From Eremomyces bilateralis CBS 781.70 (lineage: Eukaryota > Ascomycota > Dothideomycetes > Eremomycetales > Eremomycetaceae), in assembly GCF_010015585.1 (NCBI RefSeq), contig NW_022985091.1, positions 76,138 through 140,137 on the forward strand: a stretch of DNA of 64,000 nucleotides, given 5' to 3'. Under the pieces are notes generated by a model that was given only the letters and a program-made list of their open reading frames with translations, made no database searches and was not told the DNA's origin. Shown piece by piece: positions 41,454 to 64,000 of the stretch. The number at the start of each line of letters is the position of its first letter. Position 1 is the first letter of the stretch. The position numbers were made by a program, and so were the translations under genes.

Positions 41454-43360
41454 CTATAACTTGGCAAGGTTATCTGGAGGTTTCGATGATTTCCACACTT
41501 GCACCTCAGGAGTCTCGAGGTAGTTTGGAGGGAAGAAGCGTGGTCCGAGCAGCTTCTTCAAGACCTTTCCTGATGCGGTCTTTGGAAAATCGCCCTTAAC
41601 AATTCGAAGTAATGTCGGCATCTTATATCCTGCCAGCCGATCCCTTAAATCTCGTCTCAAATTGTCAATCGTCAATTCCACCTTCTTGCCGTCACCATGC
41701 GTTTTCAAAAATTCTTCCGAAATTTCCTCCTCTTGTAGCGCGATCAGGGCCGCAACGCGTTGTCCGAACTCTATATCTTCGACTCCAACAACCATGATTT
41801 CGGATACGTAAGGTAGGGCCAGGATTTCCCGCTCAATATCAAGAGCGGAGATTTTATAGCCGCCAGATTTTATAATATCCATTGATGCTCGGCCGATGAT
41901 GAAATAATGTTTCCCTTGGCGTCTCGCAACTAAACAGATTAGCAAATTTCTTCGATTTTGGTGCACAAACTCACGGTCTCCTGTCCGAAAGTAGCCTTCC
42001 TTGTCATGCGCTTTCGCGGTCGCTTCCGGATCACCCAGGTATTTGGAAAACATGTGCTAGGATATCGCATTAATGTCTCTGCCAACAATGCACAATCATC
42101 GACACTCACAGGACTTTTAACGAGAACTTCACCTTCATCTCCATCGGAGAGTTTAATATCGATCCCAGGAACCCTCTCGCCAACAGAGCCTTCCGGTACT
42201 TCGTCGGCGGACCCTAATCGGACCTTGAAGATAGCGCCGAATTCCGTGGCCCCATATCGTTGGACAATTTTCTTCTGCATGAGTTCCATCCAAAACTGAT
42301 TGATCGGATACGGCAGTGCAGAGGTGCCGCAGAGACAAGCACGAAACTGTCTAGCCCCAGCAACATACTCGGCAAGATGTGCAGGAGCCAGTTTGCTGAG
42401 CACTCGCTGATAGTATCGTCTCATCCTCATGTATATCGTTGGGACGCCGGAGAAGAAGGTGAGCCGTCGTTGGGGGTCCCGAGCCCCTTCTCTCCATCGA
42501 TCCCACAACCATTTTTCGTCAAAACTTCCGCTGCGGAACTCAATGGTGCAGCCGGAAACGAGGAAGGGAAAGAAGGTAATACCCACCCCCGTGGCGTGGT
42601 GTACGGGTAGAACGTGGAGCATGACATCTGCCTCCGTCAACGCATAGTGTTCGGCGACCGCGATCGCCCCGTCAAACACATATGACCTCCGCATGACGGC
42701 GCCCTTGGGAGGTCCGGTCGTACCAGATGTGAAAATCACAATCCCGGGCCCATTTTCATCGAGATACAGATCGGACGAAACGAGGATGTCAAAGGGATCG
42801 ATGGTGGTCGAGAACAGTGCCGGTTGAATCGGTATGCATTGGAATTTCGGGTCGCCCTCTTGCACGATCTTTGCTTCCAGTCGTTGTCCAAGCTCCATGG
42901 CATTCGAATGTGCTAAGATCGCGACGGAGCCCGATTTCTTGACAAAGTATACCGCCTCGTCGACTGGGAGCGCCGTCGTGAGGGGAACCGCAGCTGCGCC
43001 TGCGGCCAGCACCGCCAGTACCGCGACGGCATATTCATAGCTTCCAAGTGCCAGGACCGCAATATAGACATCTTCGCCATTGTCGAGGGCCTCACGAGTT
43101 CGATGGTCTAGTGAATTGATCAAGGTTTCGCGAAGGGCGAGGACATCCGAGAGCAATTGAACATGTGTCCGTGTAACATTTGCTCGACAATCTCTTATCG
43201 CGACTTTCGAGGATCGATGAGCAAGCCGAAGAAGGCGACTGAACAAAGGCTGTCATCCGTCAGGAGTTGCAACCAACATGGAGCGGGACTTTGGACTCAC
43301 TGTGCAAGGGAGGACATTCCGTCCGGAATGGCGGGGGACGAATTGCGTGCGATCGTCCAT
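41454..43360 (-). CDS. Acyl-CoA synthetase, ACSF3/malonyl-CoA synthetase-like
   Basis: Four exons, 43360-43301, 43249-42110, 42056-41975 and 41929-41454, 585 aa. The first exon supplies the ATG (MDDRTQFVP..NVLPCT), spliced phase 0 to PLFSRLLRLAHRSSKVAI. ANL adenylation-enzyme motifs are complete: A3 IVIFTSGTTGPPKGAV, A5 QRYGATEFGA, A7 GYFRTGD, A8 GRASMDIIKSGGYKISALDI and A10 FPKTASGKVLKKLL with the catalytic Lys. It activates a carboxylic acid to acyl-AMP, then acyl-CoA. The closest family is ACSF3 (malonate/methylmalonate and medium acids), but substrate cannot be read from sequence. The C-terminus (DNLAKL) ends in Ala-Lys-Leu, a possible PTS1, which would place it in peroxisomes with its neighbours. 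It is divergently arranged with the acyl-CoA oxidase. Confidence 0.9.
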
Positions 43361-44069
43361 ACTATCATGGATAATTCTCCATATCATACAAGTGCAAGGC
43401 GAAAGGGCACGGCGACCTGAAGCCTTTTCTATCCATTGCCCTTATCACGCTTACCCACTCGGCTATTGTTTTCTCTGGATTGCCCTCTATCCATGTCCTG
43501 CTAAGTACTACCGCCACATGTTCGTCGGAACGGACACAAGTTGGAGATCGGGCTTGGGTGAGTCGCTTCCGAGCTTGAGGTTCAAGTGGGGTTGGTTGTG
43601 GCCACTACATGAGGCGCCGGATATGTTCGGTATCCCCCGGCATGGATATTGGGTTTGTTTACTAAATTTCTCTCCAGAATCGTCCAGATATTCACGGATG
43701 AGAGTTTCGGGCTTCGGCACACCAGGCGAGTCAGGAATTGCCGGAGAATGGCGAACGACGATCTATCAACCAAGTCATGATCTCTCCACCGTATCCAGTT
43801 TCCAGGAAATTGCCTTGTATGCGCCATACGGTAGCTGAAATGGCCGTCAGAGGAACCACGGTACCAGTCGTTTGGGGATAGGGAATAATAATAATAAATC
43901 ACATCTGCTCACTCATGTCCTGCTCGGCAATCGGCCTGCGTCCAGAGTCATATTTGAAAGAAGTGCCACTTGTGGCACAGTTGCTCGGTCCCTGGCGTGG
44001 TTGCGCAGTCCAGACTCAATATCCATATATCGGAACGCCACGAGAACATCTAGACCTCGACTTCTGGCT

Positions 44070-44090
44070 CCCGATTCCCGATTCCCGATT
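44070..44090 (+). repeat. CCCGATT x3 microsatellite
   Basis: Three perfect tandem copies of a 7-mer in the synthetase/oxidase promoter interval. Role unknown. Confidence 0.75.
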
Positions 44091-44289
44091 CCTGATGAAG
44101 ATTCCTTGACGAAACCCTTGACGTCTGGATTGCGGCCCCTCGCGCTGGCCAAGTCGCATCGTGAAGTTTAAGCATGTAGAATCCACTATTTTGCCTTATA
44201 TTTTCCTGGACTCCAACTTTAGGCTCTTTCTTCTCCCGAGAATCGCCGGTACAGCTGTGCAGTTGTAGCCGGGCTCCCCAAATCTTAGA

Positions 44290-44295
44290 CCTCGG
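44290..44295 (+). promoter_or_regulatory. CCTCGG motif (FarA/FarB-type fatty-acid response core)
   Basis: Exact CCTCGG 152 bp upstream of the acyl-CoA oxidase ATG. In Aspergillus nidulans, FarA and FarB bind this six-base core upstream of genes for fatty-acid breakdown. A six-base match alone can occur by chance, but the gene context fits. Confidence 0.5.
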
Positions 44296-44410
44296 GGCTC
44301 ATTTTGCAAGCCATGATCGCATCTGGAATTCGACAGATAAATTGGATGGTGGTCTTTATATTCTGGACTGATACCGATTAATCAAAGCTTTGCTTGATCA
44401 TCTTTTTGGG

Positions 44411-44424
44411 ATATATATAATATT
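44411..44424 (+). promoter_or_regulatory. TATA-like element of the acyl-CoA oxidase gene
   Basis: ATATATATAATATT run ending 22 bp before the ATG. It is close to the start codon, implying a very short leader if it is the working TATA box. Confidence 0.35.
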
Positions 44425-44446
44425 AATCGCTGAGATATCAGTCACG

Positions 44447-46715
44447 ATGCCAGACTTTACGGACAACCTAAAGCCGGCACACGATGGAACCCAGATTCTG
44501 GAGGCGGAAAGGAATGGCAGTCCCTTGTCTGTTCAGGAGTTATCGAAACACTTGCTTTCCAGAAATGACTTCCTCAATCGACAGGCAAGGATCCTTGAGA
44601 TTGTCGAAAAGGAACCGTTGATGTCAAAGAAGAACCTCCTAAACTTGGCCCGTCCGGTTAGTTCGGTAGACCGTAGAACATGAATATAAACTGACAAGTG
44701 CAGGATCGATATCACCTTGGCTTGGCAAGAGCGAAACTGATTCGAAGATTGGCTCTCAAGCATGACTGGAATAAGGAGGACGCAGACATGGCTGAATACC
44801 TGGTGGACGAGATGTCACCGTATCACCTCCACCTTTCCATGTTTGGTACGTTGCCGTTGATCCCCTTTATTCCGGAGCGAATGCTCACGGCTCCTTAGTT
44901 ACCACGGTTCGAGAGCAAGGGTCGGAGGAACAGAAGGCTCATTGGATGCCCCAGATCCTCAATTACGATATCATCGGTTGCTACGCTCAGACTGAACTAG
45001 GACATGGAAGCAACGTACGAGGTCTGGAATGTCAGGCCAAGTACGATCCAACGACGAAGGAATTCATTATTCACTCGCCGACTTTGACCGCTTCCAAATG
45101 GTGGAATGGGACCATGGGCCGAACGGCAACGCATGCCATCATCGTTGCCCAGCTCATGCTGCCCGATTCGACCGGGAATTATGTGTCCCATGGGCCGCAT
45201 CCGTTCGTCGTCCAGATTCGCAACAAGGAAACTCATCTGCCTCTCGACGGCATCGTGGTTGGCGACATTGGTCCCAAATATGGTTACACGTCCATGGATA
45301 ATGGATATATGCTCCTAGATAACCACCGGGTCCCTCATTCAGCCATGTTGGCTCGATACTCCCATGTCGATCCAAACACGGGCGCGTTCTCTCGTACCGG
45401 ACACCAAGCCGTGGTATATGGCTCGCTAACTAATGTCCGCGCCACGATCATCATGCACGCAAGGCTCATCTTGGCTCGAGCAGTGACGATCGCGGTGCGA
45501 TACTCTACGATCCGGCGACAATTCCATGATAGGGATGATTCCAAGCAAGCCGGACCGGAGATGACCGTGCTAGACTACCCCACGGTGCAAATCCGGATCC
45601 TTCCTCTGGTCGCGACCACTTTTGCGCTTCATTACACCGGGGAAGCCATGTTCAACATGTATACCAGTACGCGTTCAAACATTGAAAAGGGAGATTTCTC
45701 AGGATTGGCCGAATTACATGGGGTCAGTAGTGGACTTAAGAGTTTGTGCACCACCATTGCAGCCAACGGCATTGAAACATGTCGAAGAGCGTTGGGAGGG
45801 CACGGATTTGGTGGCGGCAGCGGTCTCATCAACATCAATAACGACTACCTTTCCAAACCGACGGTTGAAGGTGACAACTGGATGATCACTCAGCAAACTG
45901 CTCGATATCTGATCAAAAAGATGGAGAGCGTCGTGGCAAAGCCCGATGCACCGGCCAAGGATGGCACCGATGCACTTTTCAAACAATATTTGAAAACGAG
46001 GAATACATACAAACCCAAGGAGCTGGTCATCAATGGACAGTACATCGACAAGGCCATGATGGAAGCGTTCGAGTGGCGTGCAGCAGATTTGGTCAGCAAC
46101 TCACTTCCTTAACGGTATCCATGTATTAAATACTAATATGCTGCAGACATATCGCGCTTATGAAGCAAGGGTTGTCCAAAAGAAGGGCTGGACGAGTCTT
46201 CTCGTGCAATTACACCGACTCAGCAACGGTAAGCCAGATGATAGATTGATGTGGAAGAGAGACCATACTGACCACATCAAGCGTATTCCGAATCCTTCCT
46301 GGTCTCAAACTTTCATCGTGCGCTCGTCCACTCGTCCCTTTCCCAAGCCGCTCAAAGGGTCATGCGAGACATGTATCGACTTTTCGCCCTCTCCACGATG
46401 GACGCCGATGCCAGGACCTTCCAGTCCTGCAACGCGGCGTCTTCTGGATCGCTGGACCAGCTTCCTGACACCATTCAACAACTCATGTTGCAGATCCGAC
46501 CCCATGCTGTGAAGGTTGTCGACGCTTGGAGCATTCCGGATTACGTCCTCGACAGTGCACTGGGGAGGTACGATGGAAAGGTATACGAGGACCTCTATGA
46601 CCGCGCACACCGACAGAACCCATTGAACAGGGTGACGTTCAATGTTGATTGGAGAAGCGATGAGATTGTCAAAGGCAGCAATGATGGGGGAAAGGATATT
46701 TTGGCGAAGTTGTAA
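44447..46715 (+). CDS. Peroxisomal acyl-CoA oxidase
   Basis: Five exons, 44447-44656, 44704-44845, 44899-46091, 46147-46228 and 46282-46715, 686 aa, a normal length. It catalyses the first step of peroxisomal beta-oxidation, making trans-2-enoyl-CoA and H2O2 with FAD. Blocks seen are GCYAQTELGHGSNVRGLEC (FAD-binding signature), TASKWWNGTMGRTATHAII, FSRTGHQAVVYGSLTNVRAT, SSGLKSLCTTIAANGIETCR, RALGGHGFGGGSGLININND and VEGDNWMITQQTARYL (catalytic Glu region). The C-terminus is AKL, a class 1 peroxisomal targeting signal. The last intron uses an AAG acceptor, giving LSNAYSESFLVSNFHRAL, which matches the family. A CCTCGG site and TATA run lie upstream. Confidence 0.95.
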
Positions 46716-47352
46716 ACTTCGAAGTATGCGATCTAGCCAACCAGAGTATTTTCGTGTAAGGGTAGCGTGTTTAAAAGATGTTCCAAAGAGGTTTTCCAGC
46801 TCTTCTCTGTACGAATCAATATGGCGGTATGACGGACTTCTGTACTGGAGCCTGAAATCCTGTCTCGGGTGAGCATGAGAATGTGAAAACACGCTGCATC
46901 GCGACGGTCCAACTGATTACTGAAGTTCTCTAAGCCTCTATACTCCGTATTATTGCTGTCAGATGTCCTTTGTCACAACAATCTACAGGGATACGAAGCG
47001 AAAACGCGGGGGAATTCGCCATTGGAACGGAGCCTGCGAAGTGTGGAGCTTAATGCTAATTAGGCCTTGGCTGACCATTGACCATGTACCAACCAACCAC
47101 TCCGGGCTGACTTAGTCCCTTTCCTACCCGCCCGAGAATCTCCCGCCTCGTCTTGGATCTCGGGACCTTGACCTTGAGGCCTCATTTTGATTCCTGTTCG
47201 CCCGATATCAGCCGTGCTGTGGATCGTCTTTGGTTGACCTGAAGTCTACAAGTGTTGTGTTTGAAAATTCTCACGTGGATTCGCGCTGAGGTTCGTCCCG
47301 AATCCTCATTCATGCGCCGCACGGTGACGGGGAAAGAGGAGGTCCAGGCATC
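46716..47352. other. Intergenic region upstream of the Zn2Cys6 regulator
   Basis: 637 bp between tandem genes. It contains TGACCATTGACCATG at 47071-47085 and several CTCGG words (e.g. 47158-47162), but no exact CCTCGG. No gene seen. Confidence 0.5.
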
Positions 47353-49682
47353 ATGGCAGACCCAAAATCAGCTCAACCGCGCACGCGAGCGCAGAGGGCT
47401 TGCATTGTCTGTCATAAGAGGAAGATCAAGTGCGATCTCGAGACATGTGCAGGTCCGCGCTGCACCAATTGCCTACGCGACGAATATGAATGCATACCGC
47501 GAGAGCGGAAGCGGAAGCGGTTTACTATGTCGCCTTCACCTTCGGGAGGCAGACCTGCTGGACGATTAAAAAGGGAGCCACCAAATCCTCGTGCTTCACT
47601 TTCGAATCCTTCCATGATGGATCCAGTATACCAACCACAGAGATCGATCAGCGATGTTGATGGAACGAACCTCACCGAGGTCTCCCCAAAGTCGATGGCA
47701 GGAGCTGCAAACCACTCCAATTCAACCCCCCCAGGAGCGGTAACAGGGCAACCGCACTACCCGCACGGTGGACCAAATACGTCGTATCTTGGCCGGAGTT
47801 CTTACATTGCGGTGGACGTTCCACTCGACGATGAGGAAGCGCCGGAGATCCCCCAGAATTTCCAAACCCTCAACGATCGAGATGTCGAGGTTTTGGGGAT
47901 CCAAAGGGTATTCGAGCTCCCGCCTCGCGCGATCAGGGAAAGTTTGATCGACCATTTCTGGGAGCGATGCTGGCCTTGGACGCCGATTGTCGACCGCAGT
48001 TGGCTGAAGGGTAGGAACGCCGGCATGACCAACACCATGTTCGACCCCGAAGGCGAATCTGGGACGCCTAGTATTCTGTTGCTCCAGGCTATGTTACTGG
48101 CCGGCTCACGAGTGAGCACGGCCATATTTCCAAGCCCAACTTCGGGGACTAGTGCCAACAAAGACATTACCCCAGGTTTCGGCCCCGAAGACTTCTACCG
48201 GAGAGCCAAAACGTTGTTCTGGACAGGATCCGAACGAGACCCTCTTCTCATCACGGTTGCAGCTTGTTTGCTCAACTGGTGGAATCCAGAGGGGCCAGAG
48301 CATTTCTCGACCGATACCAGTGGGTTTTGGCTGAGAATCAGTGTTGGACTGGCGTATCAGATTGGCCTCCACAAAGATCCAGGGGATTCATCGGAAGACT
48401 CTGGTATCAGGAGAAGGATATTTTGGTCCCTTGTTGTATGAAAGCCTGGTTCGGAATCATCTGGGGTATTTCTAACTGTCTGCTTCAGGTTCGAGACTGC
48501 CTGATCAATGCAGGCCATGGCAGACCTAGAGCAATAAACCTACAGCTAGCCGATGTGCTACCCCCCACAGCAAAGGACTTCGATGGAGACGAGAGAGCAG
48601 CAGAGCTATTCCGGCATTACATAGGTATCTCTTTGGTCCTGGGTAAGTTTGATACCGGTCTAAACGACTAAAATTTGATTTAAAGACATTCATTGATGTC
48701 TCTAGGGGACTTAACCCAGGTCTTCTTATCAAGAGCCAAATTCCAACCCGAACAGAAACTTTGCATGGACAATGCGGTATTTCGATGGCTCAAGACCCTT
48801 CCTGAGCATCTGCAACTGTGCCACCATACTTCAGCACGACCTCTTCGATCATACCATTTTGAAGCAAGACAACTTCATGTCCAGGTCCGATCTCTACAAC
48901 TCACTGATGGATTATAAACTAACTCTAAGTTACAGTATTTTACCGTGTTGACAATTCTGAACCGGGCCCAAAATACCAGTGGACCTCCCTCGACAGCATC
49001 CGTGCTCGCCTCATCCTTCGTCGTCGGAATATTCGAAGATTTTCTAGCCCGGGACGAGGTCCGATTCTTGGGTCCAATCTTCACCTTCTATCTCCTCTCA
49101 GCGGGCATTGCCCAACTCTCGTGTTACCGTTATCCAGGGTTATGGCATCTTGCGCAGCAGGATCTGGAAGTCATCTTTCGAAGTCAGAACGAGCTTGCCA
49201 AACGCTGGCCGTCAGCGATCGGAGCTCTCAAAACGCTGGCTGATGTACGGAGCAAAATATCCGGGCGTCAAAAAAGCACATATTTCCCCGACAACAATCT
49301 GACCGAGGACCAAGCTCAGTTTTTTGTAGACTTTGGGCCGGATCTGGCAAGGGAGTGGAATGTGCTCTATGGCAGCCAGTCGCACCGATGCGGGAACGGA
49401 AACATGCCGGACGAAAGCAATCGACAAGTCGCCACCCGGGACCTGATGACCGCTGGAATCCTGTCTGACCTGCAAACGCAAGCCCAAGGAGCGGCTCCAG
49501 CCGATGATGTCTCTGCTGGCCGTGGGTTACTCCCAACCGGCATGGCGCCGGACGAAGCCGCAAATGGGGCGTCTGGCATGTACCACCAGGAACCACTGCT
49601 TGACTCCGTTCCTACGACATTCGATTACGACGGCATTGGCAACTGGTTGTTCAATGATTGGGATGCGACGGCGATGTGGTGA
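47353..49682 (+). CDS. Zn2Cys6 transcription factor with fungal-specific regulatory domain
   Basis: Four exons, 47353-48435, 48489-48642, 48706-48884 and 48936-49682, 720 aa. The binuclear cluster near residues 17-44 reads C-x2-C-x6-C-x9-C-x2-C-x6-C (ACIVCHKRKIKC..CTNCLRDEYEC), followed by the basic PRERKRKR. The middle homology region has FWERCWPWTPIVDRSWL, LLLQAMLLAGSRVSTAIF, DFYRRAKTLFWTGSERDPLL, WLRISVGLAYQIGLHKD and, across intron 1, a join to VRDCLINAGHGRPRAI. The CH(K/Q)RK(I/V)(K/R)CD cluster resembles cutinase-factor/FarB-type regulators more than GAL4-type ones, by eye. Given its place between beta-oxidation genes, local control of that cluster is likely but inferred. The donors GTATGA and GTCCGA are unusual, so these two exon ends are less certain. 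Confidence 0.87.
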
Positions 49683-50118
49683 AATCAGGGGGTCGGTTCA
49701 CTATTGTCAGACTCAAATACAAATGGGCTCCCAGGGCATGGCTGCATCACAATAGAGAACACATGCCAATTGTCATTCCCGGCTCGTTCCTTCACGTAAC
49801 TTGCAGACCCACAGAACCATTCCAGTTTTGCGGGGAACCGAAATCTCCCGAGAACAACCGGACCCACTTGAACAAAAGCTTCCTGGAGCCAGAAATCCAC
49901 AACGCGCGGGGCTGGTCCAGGGTTCACGGGAACTCGGCCTCGGGCAAAGCTTCACCACAACAACTACCCCGGCCGTTGTGGTCATACCGGTAGTCAATTG
50001 TCGCGGTTACATACAGTTGGTGTACCGCTGCACGATAATTTTGATCATTGCAGATTTATCACTCACGAAGGCCAATATCATCCAGAAATTTGAGAATCGT
50101 TCATCGACACCTTTCACG
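49683..50118. promoter_or_regulatory. Promoter region of the enoyl-CoA hydratase/isomerase gene
   Basis: 436 bp between the regulator gene and the hydratase gene, with an exact CCTCGG at 49938-49943. Codons in frame with the hydratase run back to 49801 but lack family features, so I treat them as leader. Confidence 0.45.
49938..49943 (+). promoter_or_regulatory. CCTCGG motif (FarA/FarB-type core)
   Basis: Exact CCTCGG 176 bp upstream of the hydratase ATG, at nearly the same distance as the copy upstream of the acyl-CoA oxidase. Confidence 0.5.
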
Positions 50119-50908
50119 ATGGCGCTCGGAACCTACAAGGACCTCAGCGTGGAGCGACGCGGGCAGGTCTTCATCGTCACCATGCAGAAGAAGCCAGAAA
50201 ACCGAATCAACGTGGAATTCGCCCAAGAGATTATTCGTGCATTCCGTGATATCGAAAAAGAACTGGGACCCGACAGCGAAGGCGCCGTGATCACGCGAGG
50301 AAGCGATGCCAAATTCTGGTGCACGGGGCTCGACTTGGACGAAGCCGAAACCAACCCGTTCGCAAACAGCGATGGGTTCTTCCCGGTATGTATATTCCCA
50401 GATGAAACAGAATGATATTTTGGCTCATCCAAATCCGCCGCAGCTTCTCGCCACGATCCTCGACTTTCCATTTCCCACCATCGCCCTCATCACCGGCCAC
50501 ACGTTCGGCGGCGCCGTCCCCTTCTCCCTGTCCCACGACTACCGCATCATGAACTCCAAGCGCGGCTTCATCTCGATGCCCCCGGTCAACCTCGGGCTTC
50601 ACTTCCCGGGCATCGGGGCGCTTCCCCGCCTGAAGCTGCGACCGCAGATCGCCCGACAGATGCTCCTGGAAGCGCACAAGTGGACCGGAAAGGAGGCATA
50701 CGCCGACGGGATCGTCGACGCGGTGGCGGAGCCGGAGGAGATGCTGGAGGCGGCGGTGAAGCTTGCGGAGAAATGGCAGAGTAAGTCGAAGATGGGGGTC
50801 TATAGTGTGTTGCGAAGCGAGCTCTATGGCGAGGCGCTGGACAAGCTCCGGTCCATTAGCTATGTGCACGGGAAGAGGGTGACAGCTCCGGCCAAAGCGA
50901 AGATCTAA
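50119..50908 (+). CDS. Enoyl-CoA hydratase/isomerase (crotonase) family protein
   Basis: Two exons, 50119-50385 and 50444-50908, 243 aa. Crotonase-fold features are the N-terminal strand VERRGQVFIVTMQKKPENRI, the first oxyanion-hole segment GSDAKFWCTGLDLDEAE and the second FGGAVPFSLSHDYRIM, followed by GFISMPPVNLGLHFPGIGA and ALPRLKLRPQIARQMLLEAH. An acidic residue in the MPPVNLG loop, expected at the hydratase Glu position, is missing, which favours delta3,delta2-enoyl-CoA isomerase (Eci-like) over hydratase. The C-terminus is AKI, a weak PTS1-like tripeptide, so it is probably peroxisomal. That would let it handle unsaturated fatty acids in the same pathway as the oxidase upstream. Convergent with the Ser/Thr-rich gene. 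Confidence 0.88.
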
Positions 50909-63340: not shown

Positions 63341-64000
63341 CTATTCCTTGTCCTGGAAGAACTCAACCATAACATCTTCTGCAGGCTGCAGCACAATATC
63401 CGCTCTCATCCTTGGCATAACCCCTCCCATACGGTCCTCAACTCGGGTATACGTCTGGAACACTCTCGTGAGGGTATAGCCCATCTCCGTCAAGGCGAAC
63501 TGCTGGCCGATACAGATTCTTGGCCCTCCGTTGAAGGGGATGTACGTCCAACTCTTGGGCGTCCAACCATCCCATCGCTCGGGGACGAACGAATTGACGG
63601 GAGGGAAGCCGGAAGATTCCGAAGGGTAGAGGTCAGGTCGTCGCTGCATCAAAAGGGTTGAGTAGCCGATCGGCGTATCTTTCAATATCCCAATCGGCTC
63701 ATTGCCGTCCGGTCCACCGCCTCGAGGAAGAGTCGTATCCTTCAGCGCCAATCGAACGTTGAAGGGAACCACCGGATACAAACGGAGGATCTCATTGATG
63801 ACATGCTATGATCCGGATTAGCTCCTCCAAACCCCAAGCCATCGAAATCCAAGGGCCAACTTACTTGCAGATAACGCATGCTTTTCAAATCCTCGTACGA
63901 AGGTTGACGAGTTGGTCCGACGACGGCCAAGATCTCTTCTCTCAGCTTCTTCACAACATTCGGTGCGTGGCTGAGTTCGTGGATGGTCCACATCAGAGTA
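63341..64000 (-). CDS. Cytochrome P450, CYP52-like, 5' part cut by window edge
   Basis: The last two exons are seen, >64000-63865 and 63805-63341, with a 59-bp intron (GTAAGT..CATAG). The reading frame enters from the edge as TLMWTIHELSHAPNVVKKLR, the end of helix I and helix J. The K-helix ExxR is in INEILRLYPVVPFNVR (phase 0 across the intron). TLPRGGGPDGNEPIG is a hallmark of fungal alkane/fatty-acid P450s of the CYP52 clan. The PERW motif follows, and the haem-binding loop is FNGGPRICIGQQFALTE with the axial Cys. CYP52 enzymes sit on the ER and hydroxylate alkanes and fatty acids at the terminal carbon, feeding products to peroxisomal beta-oxidation. Subfamily and substrate cannot be fixed from the C-terminal part alone. 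Confidence 0.9.

What the first reader, a model, noticed from the sequence alone, without database searches (positions are those of the whole stretch)
41454..50908. Compact fatty-acid activation and peroxisomal beta-oxidation cluster with its own Zn2Cys6 regulator
Four adjacent genes encode an ACSF3-type acyl-CoA synthetase, an acyl-CoA oxidase, a Zn2Cys6 factor and a crotonase-family enzyme. Three of the four proteins end in AKL, AKL and AKI, i.e. PTS1-like tails. Core beta-oxidation genes are usually scattered in ascomycetes, so a cluster with an embedded regulator suggests a dedicated catabolic (or side-chain-shortening) pathway for a particular acid. Missing from the set are the multifunctional Fox2 and thiolase steps, which general enzymes could supply.
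Basis: partly seen in the sequence, partly recalled or inferred. Interest (0 to 1): 0.72.

Follow-up and report, generated by a model that had tools for sequence, protein, structure and literature searches.

The report
Fungal peroxisomal acid-breakdown gene cluster
Four neighbouring fungal genes encode three enzymes that appear to work in the peroxisome on one particular acid plus a likely switch protein, and broken relatives of the three enzymes sit together elsewhere in the same genome; it looks real and coherent but is a variation on a known kind of cluster, and its acid is unknown.

Summary
The four genes exist at 41454-50908 as complete spliced models: acyl-CoA synthetase (585 aa, -AKL), acyl-CoA oxidase (686 aa, -AKL), Zn2Cys6 factor (720 aa), crotonase (243 aa, -AKI). 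Of 544 stop-to-stop ORFs of 60 aa or more in the window, only these three enzymes end in [SAC][KRH][LMI]. Elsewhere in the genome, decayed relatives of synthetase, crotonase and oxidase lie within 4.3 kb: gene content, not order, recurs. This supports one pathway. 'Core beta-oxidation cluster' needs correction: the synthetase is a divergent ACSF3/MatB relative with both arginines of that family, beside a separate likely mitochondrial ACSF3; the oxidase is 56% identical to a second one; the crotonase lacks the glutamates of hydratases and Eci1-type isomerases. A shared motif, CCCGAGAA-N3/4-CCG, lies 212-272 nt before three of four start codons, but was found post hoc (comparable motifs in 2.3-9.7% of random trios). 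No fungal relatives were searchable, so cross-species synteny and co-regulation are untested. Verdict: real, probably a dedicated peroxisomal acyl-CoA module; new variant of a known kind; substrate unknown, possibly a dicarboxylate-like acid.

The parts
41454..43360 (-). ACSF3/MatB-family acyl-CoA synthetase, 585 aa, ends NLAKL; exons 43301-43360, 42110-43249, 41975-42056, 41454-41929
   Evidence: model; Pfam AMP-binding 155.2 bits, AMP-binding_C 42.5 bits; best solved relatives are malonyl-CoA ligases; R295, R351
43361..44446 (.). 1,086 bp divergent intergenic region between synthetase and oxidase
44235..44248 (+). candidate regulator site CCCGAGAATCGCCG, starting 212 nt before the oxidase ATG
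   Evidence: post hoc, suggestive
44447..46715 (+). ACOX1-type acyl-CoA oxidase, 686 aa, ends ILAKL; exons 44447-44656, 44704-44845, 44899-46091, 46147-46228, 46282-46715; E441 in TVEGDN
47131..47145 (+). candidate regulator site CCCGAGAATCTCCCG, starting 222 nt before the Zn2Cys6 ATG
   Evidence: post hoc, suggestive
47353..49682 (+). Zn2Cys6 transcription factor, 720 aa; exons 47353-48435, 48489-48642, 48706-48884, 48936-49682; cysteines 17, 20, 27, 37, 40, 47 (extra Cys32)
49847..49860 (+). candidate regulator site CCCGAGAACAACCG, starting 272 nt before the crotonase ATG
   Evidence: post hoc, suggestive
50119..50908 (+). crotonase-family protein, 243 aa, ends KAKI; exons 50119-50385, 50444-50908; P136, G145 and Q161 at the three known Glu positions

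Best explanation
A small peroxisomal acyl-CoA module dedicated to one class of acid. Inferred steps: (1) the synthetase, imported by its AKL tail, turns the acid into a CoA thioester; its two ACSF3/MatB-type arginines suggest an acid with a second carboxylate or similar polar end; (2) the ACOX1-type oxidase makes the 2,3-enoyl-CoA and H2O2; (3) the crotonase does an accessory step other than ordinary hydration, such as moving a double bond or removing a group, because the hydratase glutamates are gone; (4) hydration, dehydrogenation and thiolysis come from general peroxisomal enzymes encoded elsewhere; (5) the Zn2Cys6 factor switches the set on, perhaps through CCCGAGAA-N3/4-CCG. Shown: gene models, domains, tails, residue states, a second decayed set. 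Inferred: localisation, all activities, order of steps, regulation, substrate class.
For: Complete models and domains. Three PTS1-like tails among 544 ORFs, all in this set. Synthetase: best solved relatives are malonyl-CoA ligases (3nyq, 1.4e-43). VPTIYxR and RYGxTE were found in this synthetase and in the likely canonical ACSF3 on C1, and in no other of the 14 AMP-binding loci looked at by pattern (some loci are one gene; L003 and L005 gave no match to the second pattern; AMP-binding places without a locus were not looked at). Human ACSF3 Arg354 of ERYGMTE is reported as involved in substrate binding (PMC12476969, passages). Oxidase: domains and Glu kept. Crotonase: P, G and Q at the three Glu sites, whereas 12 of 13 paralogue loci aligned have Glu at the first hydratase site (8) or the Eci1 site (4 more). 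C4: synthetase fragment (36% over 69-70 aa, 39.7 bits; best of 200 shuffles 23.5), crotonase fragment (55% over 74 aa) 47 nt away, oxidase fragments about 3 kb on. CCGAGAA-N3/4-CCG once in each of three intergenic regions and nowhere else in the window.
Against: No activity, localisation, expression or cross-species data. The C4 oxidase remnant is no closer to this oxidase (106 bits) than to the second genomic oxidase (110 bits), and gene order and strands differ on C4, so it may be a separately assembled set. The Zn2Cys6 factor has no match there above noise, and CCGAGAA is absent from that 16.5 kb. Motif: 36 genome hits against 24 for the reversed control; comparable shared motifs arise in 2.3-2.5% of Markov trios and 9.7% of real-sequence trios. 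The synthetase is far below NCBIfam's malonyl-CoA synthase cut-off (180.9 against 558), and two broader acyl-CoA synthetase models score higher, so substrate transfer is weak. One other crotonase locus (L048) also lacks Glu at the first two sites.
Confidence: 0.5

Rival explanations
1. Side-chain-shortening or acyl-supply module of a specialised-metabolite pathway whose scaffold genes lie elsewhere, as in mycophenolic acid (shortening by peroxisomal enzymes) or the AK-toxin and fusarinine-type siderophore sets (peroxisomal CoA ligase + crotonase).
For: Peroxisomal ligase + crotonase sets are known in biosynthesis (PMC9134587, passages) and peroxisomal chain shortening in PMC12591190 (passages). 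The C4 remnant has an alpha/beta-hydrolase frame between the fragments, as AKT2 accompanies AKT1 and AKT3.
Against: No synthase domain in the eight window ORFs scanned around the cluster (the rest of the window was not scanned with Pfam); neighbours are MIF4G/MA3, Sec23/24 and kinesin genes. A P450 fragment lies about 12 kb away.
Confidence: 0.22
2. Ordinary fatty-acid catabolism: a spare oxidase and synthetase for general beta-oxidation that happen to be neighbours, regulated by FarA/FarB-type factors.
For: 56% identity between the two oxidases. The later steps are encoded elsewhere.
Against: The synthetase is ACSF3/MatB-like; the crotonase is unusual; the FarA/CTF1-type core CCTCGG (PMC4117967, passages) is not enriched: 2 of 42 window sites in 2.16 kb of cluster intergenic DNA, about 1.4 expected by my arithmetic; gene content recurs on C4.
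Confidence: 0.2
3. Chance neighbours without a shared pathway.
For: No cross-species synteny or expression test was possible.
Against: Oxidase-type and crotonase loci lie within 15 kb at 3 of 4 oxidase-type loci, about 0.07 pairs expected; one of the three is this cluster itself, and the C7 pair is 8.7 kb apart with another gene between. Tails; C4 set.
Confidence: 0.08

Closest known systems
ACSF3 / MatB (malonyl- and methylmalonyl-CoA synthetases)
   Same: Best solved relatives; both arginine motifs VPTxYxR and RYGxTE
   Different: Ends in AKL, whereas ACSF3 is mitochondrial; 30-43% identical in pieces to the genome's own likely canonical ACSF3; YGATEFG instead of YGMTEIG; below NCBIfam's malonyl-CoA synthase cut-off
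Peroxisomal acyl-CoA oxidase ACOX1/ACX1
   Same: ACOX domains, Glu in TVEGDN, best solved matches are peroxisomal acyl-CoA oxidases 1
   Different: Stands beside a paralogue on C1 (700 aa open frame ending SKL, 56% identical) with similar matches
Crotonase superfamily (enoyl-CoA hydratase, Eci1-type isomerase, methylmalonyl-CoA decarboxylase)
   Same: Crotonase domain; top NCBIfam model is methylmalonyl-CoA decarboxylase, with a similar SM-P-VNLG stretch
   Different: Glu sites are P136, G145, Q161; 72.1 bits against that model's cut-off of 257
Fungal peroxisomal biosynthetic sets (AK-toxin AKT1-3 with AKTR; SidI/SidH/SidF) and mycophenolic acid chain shortening
   Same: CoA ligase, crotonase and regulator in one cluster with peroxisomal enzymes (AK-toxin); ACOX + ligase chain shortening in peroxisomes (mycophenolic acid) (passages)
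   Different: Here an acyl-CoA oxidase is inside the cluster, and no scaffold synthase was seen in the eight nearby ORFs scanned. Sequence similarity to these proteins was not tested.

Membership tests
ACSF3/MatB acyl-CoA synthetase | Arg of the VPTxYxR motif (recalled as the malonate-binding Arg of MatB; its role comes from no call) | tested here: met
   R295 aligned to the Arg of VPTMYHR in 3nyq
ACSF3/MatB acyl-CoA synthetase | Arg of ERYGMTE (human Arg354, reported as involved in substrate binding) | tested here: met
   R351 in QRYGATE
ACSF3/MatB acyl-CoA synthetase | NCBIfam malonyl-CoA synthase (NF005702) cut-off | tested here: not met
   180.9 bits against 558; the library is for bacterial and archaeal proteins
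ACSF3/MatB acyl-CoA synthetase | Activates malonate or methylmalonate | not testable with these tools
   needs an enzyme assay
ACOX1-type acyl-CoA oxidase | ACOX N-terminal, C-alpha1 and C-terminal domains, catalytic Glu | tested here: met
   that this Glu is the catalytic one is recalled
Enoyl-CoA hydratase (crotonase) | Two catalytic glutamates (rat Glu144, Glu164; PMC3660561, passages) | tested here: not met
   P136 and Q161
Eci1-type enoyl-CoA isomerase | Glu after the NLGL stretch (position recalled; seen here in L050, L052, L058) | tested here: not met
   G145 in the cluster protein
Methylmalonyl-CoA decarboxylase | His66 and Tyr140 (recalled) | tested here: not met
   Leu and Phe in the alignment to 1ef8; 72.1 bits against a cut-off of 257
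Zn2Cys6 transcription factor | CX2CX6C...CX2CX6C and Fungal_trans domain | tested here: met
Peroxisomal matrix enzyme set (PTS1) | C-terminal PTS1 tripeptide | tested here: met
   AKL, AKL, AKI; import itself not tested
Co-regulated gene cluster | Conserved synteny and co-expression in relatives | not testable with these tools
   no fungal relatives held; viral scans with synthetase and oxidase and a prokaryote scan with the crotonase found no relatives

The most novel reading that the evidence does not exclude
A peroxisomal pathway for a malonate-like or branched dicarboxylic acid: a peroxisomal ACSF3-type synthetase loads the diacid, a glutamate-less crotonase removes or moves a group (for example as a decarboxylase), and a private ACOX1-type oxidase continues the breakdown, all under a private regulator.
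Probability: 0.13. Interest if true: 0.6.

Novelty: new variant of a known kind. Interest (0 to 1): 0.36.

Why it matters
If confirmed it would place an ACSF3-type synthetase, a family known for malonate activation in mitochondria, inside a peroxisomal pathway with its own oxidase and regulator, and would give a small, testable unit for asking how fungi dedicate parts of beta-oxidation to single acids. A second, decayed set in the same genome suggests such units are gained and lost.

Tried and rejected
Tried without result: scans of viral contigs with the synthetase and the oxidase and of prokaryote genomes with the crotonase matched patterns but found no relatives, so no cross-species synteny. 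An AlphaFold model of the crotonase from its single sequence was unusable (mean pLDDT 38) and was not searched further.

Considered and rejected: the FarA-type core CCTCGG as the common site (no enrichment). CCG-N7-CCG as the common site (45 places in the window). The motif as a genome-wide beta-oxidation signal: of the 33 hits outside this cluster, none lies within 20 kb of a listed oxidase-type, crotonase, thiolase or MaoC match; one (C4:194271) lies 1.6 kb from an AMP-binding match at C4:195834, which I did not follow further. The C4 set as a recent copy: the oxidase remnant is about equally far from both oxidases. The oxidase as unusually animal/plant-like: the second oxidase scores the same way. 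Literature: five of ten searches aimed at such clusters or at diacid use, five at single enzymes or toxins. One search found no paper; none of the listings shows a fungal cluster with this gene set. I read listings and passages only, so this is no proof of absence. Passages in PMC6122825, PMC13168922, PMC3098103 and PMC12316961 gave nothing that I use.
Full report
What is there. The four genes give complete models: synthetase 41454-43360 (-), oxidase 44447-46715 (+), Zn2Cys6 factor 47353-49682 (+), crotonase 50119-50908 (+). All 11 introns are GT..AG, 45-63 nt. Synthetase and oxidase are divergent over 1,086 bp. Pfam confirms the domains above cut-off; one more match in the oxidase, Acyl-CoA_dh_M, is below its cut-off. 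The tails are AKL, AKL and AKI. Of 544 stop-to-stop ORFs of 60 aa or more in the window, 3 end in [SAC][KRH][LMI], and they are these three. AKI fused to a fluorescent protein is reported to direct it to Histoplasma peroxisomes (PMC13343957, passages).

Setting. The window is part of contig C25 of a 26.6 Mb genome in 62 contigs; I did not establish the species. Eight window ORFs were scanned with Pfam: the left neighbour (MIF4G/MA3), a Sec23/24-domain gene and a Mad-type checkpoint gene further left, a kinesin on the right, a P450 fragment about 12 kb to the right, and three without a family, among them the serine-rich right neighbour. No synthase of a specialised metabolite was among these eight; the rest of the window was not scanned.

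Synthetase. Its best solved relatives are malonyl-CoA ligases (3nyq E=1.4e-43, then malonyl-CoA synthetase entries). R295 (VPTIYMR) and R351 (QRYGATE) match the arginines of MatB. The role of the first is recalled; the second corresponds to human Arg354, reported as involved in substrate binding (PMC12476969, passages). I looked by pattern at 14 AMP-binding loci of this genome, some covering one gene: only the cluster gene and the gene at C1:1598 kb show both motifs. Two of the 14 (L003, L005) gave no match to the YGxTE pattern, and AMP-binding places without a locus were not looked at. The C1 gene has an N-terminus that, by eye, looks like a mitochondrial presequence and reads LERYGMTE, so it is the likely canonical ACSF3; the cluster protein is 30-43% identical to it in pieces. 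Against a simple transfer of function: 180.9 bits against NCBIfam's malonyl-CoA synthase cut-off of 558, with two broader acyl-CoA synthetase models scoring higher (224.6 and 213.2 bits, also below their cut-offs).

Oxidase. Its best matches are solved peroxisomal acyl-CoA oxidases of the ACOX1 type (387-395 bits; the organisms, plants, rat and human, are recalled from the entry codes) before 5ys9 and 5y9d (about 253 bits; Yarrowia, recalled). The second oxidase of this genome (C1:1395 kb, 56% identical, open frame ending SKL) behaves alike, so this is not special. The ACOX C-alpha1 search gave four loci: two strong (190-204 bits) and two weak (about 31 bits), namely the C4 remnant and a frame on C7 that by eye is acyl-CoA-dehydrogenase-like.

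Crotonase. The two catalytic glutamates of enoyl-CoA hydratase (PMC3660561, passages) are replaced by P136 and Q161, and the Glu of Eci1-like paralogues by G145. The family search gave 20 matches: the cluster gene, the C4 remnant, 13 loci that I aligned, and 5 that by position are further exons of those genes. Of the 13, 8 have Glu at the first site and 4 more have it at the Eci1 site; one (L048) has neither and has Asp at the third site, so loss is rare but not unique. The C4 remnant has G and K at the second and third sites. The top NCBIfam model is methylmalonyl-CoA decarboxylase, at 72.1 bits against a cut-off of 257, and that enzyme's catalytic His and Tyr (recalled) are not kept. It is therefore unlikely to be an ordinary hydratase; its reaction is unknown.

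A second, decayed set. On contig C4 a fragment of this synthetase type (36% over 69-70 aa; 39.7 bits against 21.2 for the N-terminal exon of the likely canonical ACSF3 and a best of 23.5 in 200 shuffles) lies 47 nt from a fragment of this crotonase type (55% over 74 aa). Oxidase fragments broken by a stop and a frame change lie about 3 kb away, with an alpha/beta-hydrolase frame between. Order and strands differ from the window, and the Zn2Cys6 factor has no match there above noise; a frame that looks like another fungal factor gave no Pfam match. The oxidase remnant is about equally distant from both intact oxidases (106 and 110 bits), so I read it as an old or separately assembled set, not a recent copy. 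Co-occurrence of the same unusual synthetase and crotonase types is the strongest evidence that the genes belong together.

Clustering in general. Using positions from the family searches, oxidase-type and crotonase loci are within 15 kb at 3 of 4 oxidase-type loci, 0.07 pairs expected by uniform placement. One of the three is this cluster itself, and one is weak: C7, 8.7 kb apart with an enolase-superfamily-like gene (by eye) between. AMP-binding and crotonase loci are within 15 kb at three places (C25, C3, C4:1525-1535 kb) against 0.4 expected. The C3 pair is a 4CL-like frame (by eye) ending AKL and a crotonase ending SKL, 3.6 kb apart. So accessory genes are paired more than once here, while the thiolase and MaoC matches are on other contigs than the cluster. 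The left neighbours of the second oxidase that I could read are an aldo-keto-reductase-like and a kinase-like frame, by eye.

Regulation. CCCGAGAA-N3/4-CCG occurs once in each of three intergenic regions, on the + strand, starting 212, 222 and 272 nt before the oxidase, factor and crotonase start codons; CCGAGAA-N3/4-CCG occurs nowhere else in the window. The first copy starts 875 nt from the synthetase start. Genome-wide there are 36 hits against 24 for the reversed pattern. None of the 33 hits outside the cluster lies within 20 kb of a listed oxidase-type, crotonase, thiolase or MaoC match; one lies 1.6 kb from an AMP-binding match on C4. Because the motif was found after looking, I tested how often any 8-mer + gap + 3-mer is shared by three such sequences: 2.5% and 2.3% of Markov trios, 9.7% of trios of real window sequence. 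It is a lead, not proof. CCGAGAA is absent from the C4 stretch.

Conclusion. The most likely reading is a dedicated peroxisomal acyl-CoA module with its own regulator, using general enzymes for the remaining steps. The ACSF3/MatB arginines point to a diacid-like substrate, at moderate to low confidence. It is a variant of known fungal peroxisomal clusters (PMC9134587, PMC12591190, passages), the unusual points being the private oxidase, the ACSF3-type synthetase with a peroxisomal tail, and the glutamate-less crotonase.

Noticed in passing
G000:C4:154896-159134 (L061, L041): Decayed relatives of the synthetase, crotonase and oxidase lie together, with an open alpha/beta-hydrolase frame at 155898-156704 between them.
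   Followed up: yes
G000:C1:1598413-1599958 (L075): Likely canonical mitochondrial ACSF3 of this fungus (VPTIYTR, LERYGMTE, presequence-like N-terminus by eye).
   Followed up: partly
G000:C3:1112934-1118835 (L076, L049, L056): 4CL-like synthetase frame ending AKL and a crotonase ending SKL 3.6 kb apart: another possible peroxisomal pair.
   Followed up: partly
G000:C7:777861-787610 (L042, L085, L047): Acyl-CoA-dehydrogenase-like frame ending SKL and a crotonase ending AKL, with an enolase-superfamily-like gene between (labels by eye).
   Followed up: partly
G000:C4:194271-196667: A genome copy of the candidate motif lies 1.6 kb from an AMP-binding match (L017, L077).
   Followed up: no
window 63341-63805: Cytochrome P450 C-terminal part at the right end of the window, minus strand.
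   Followed up: no
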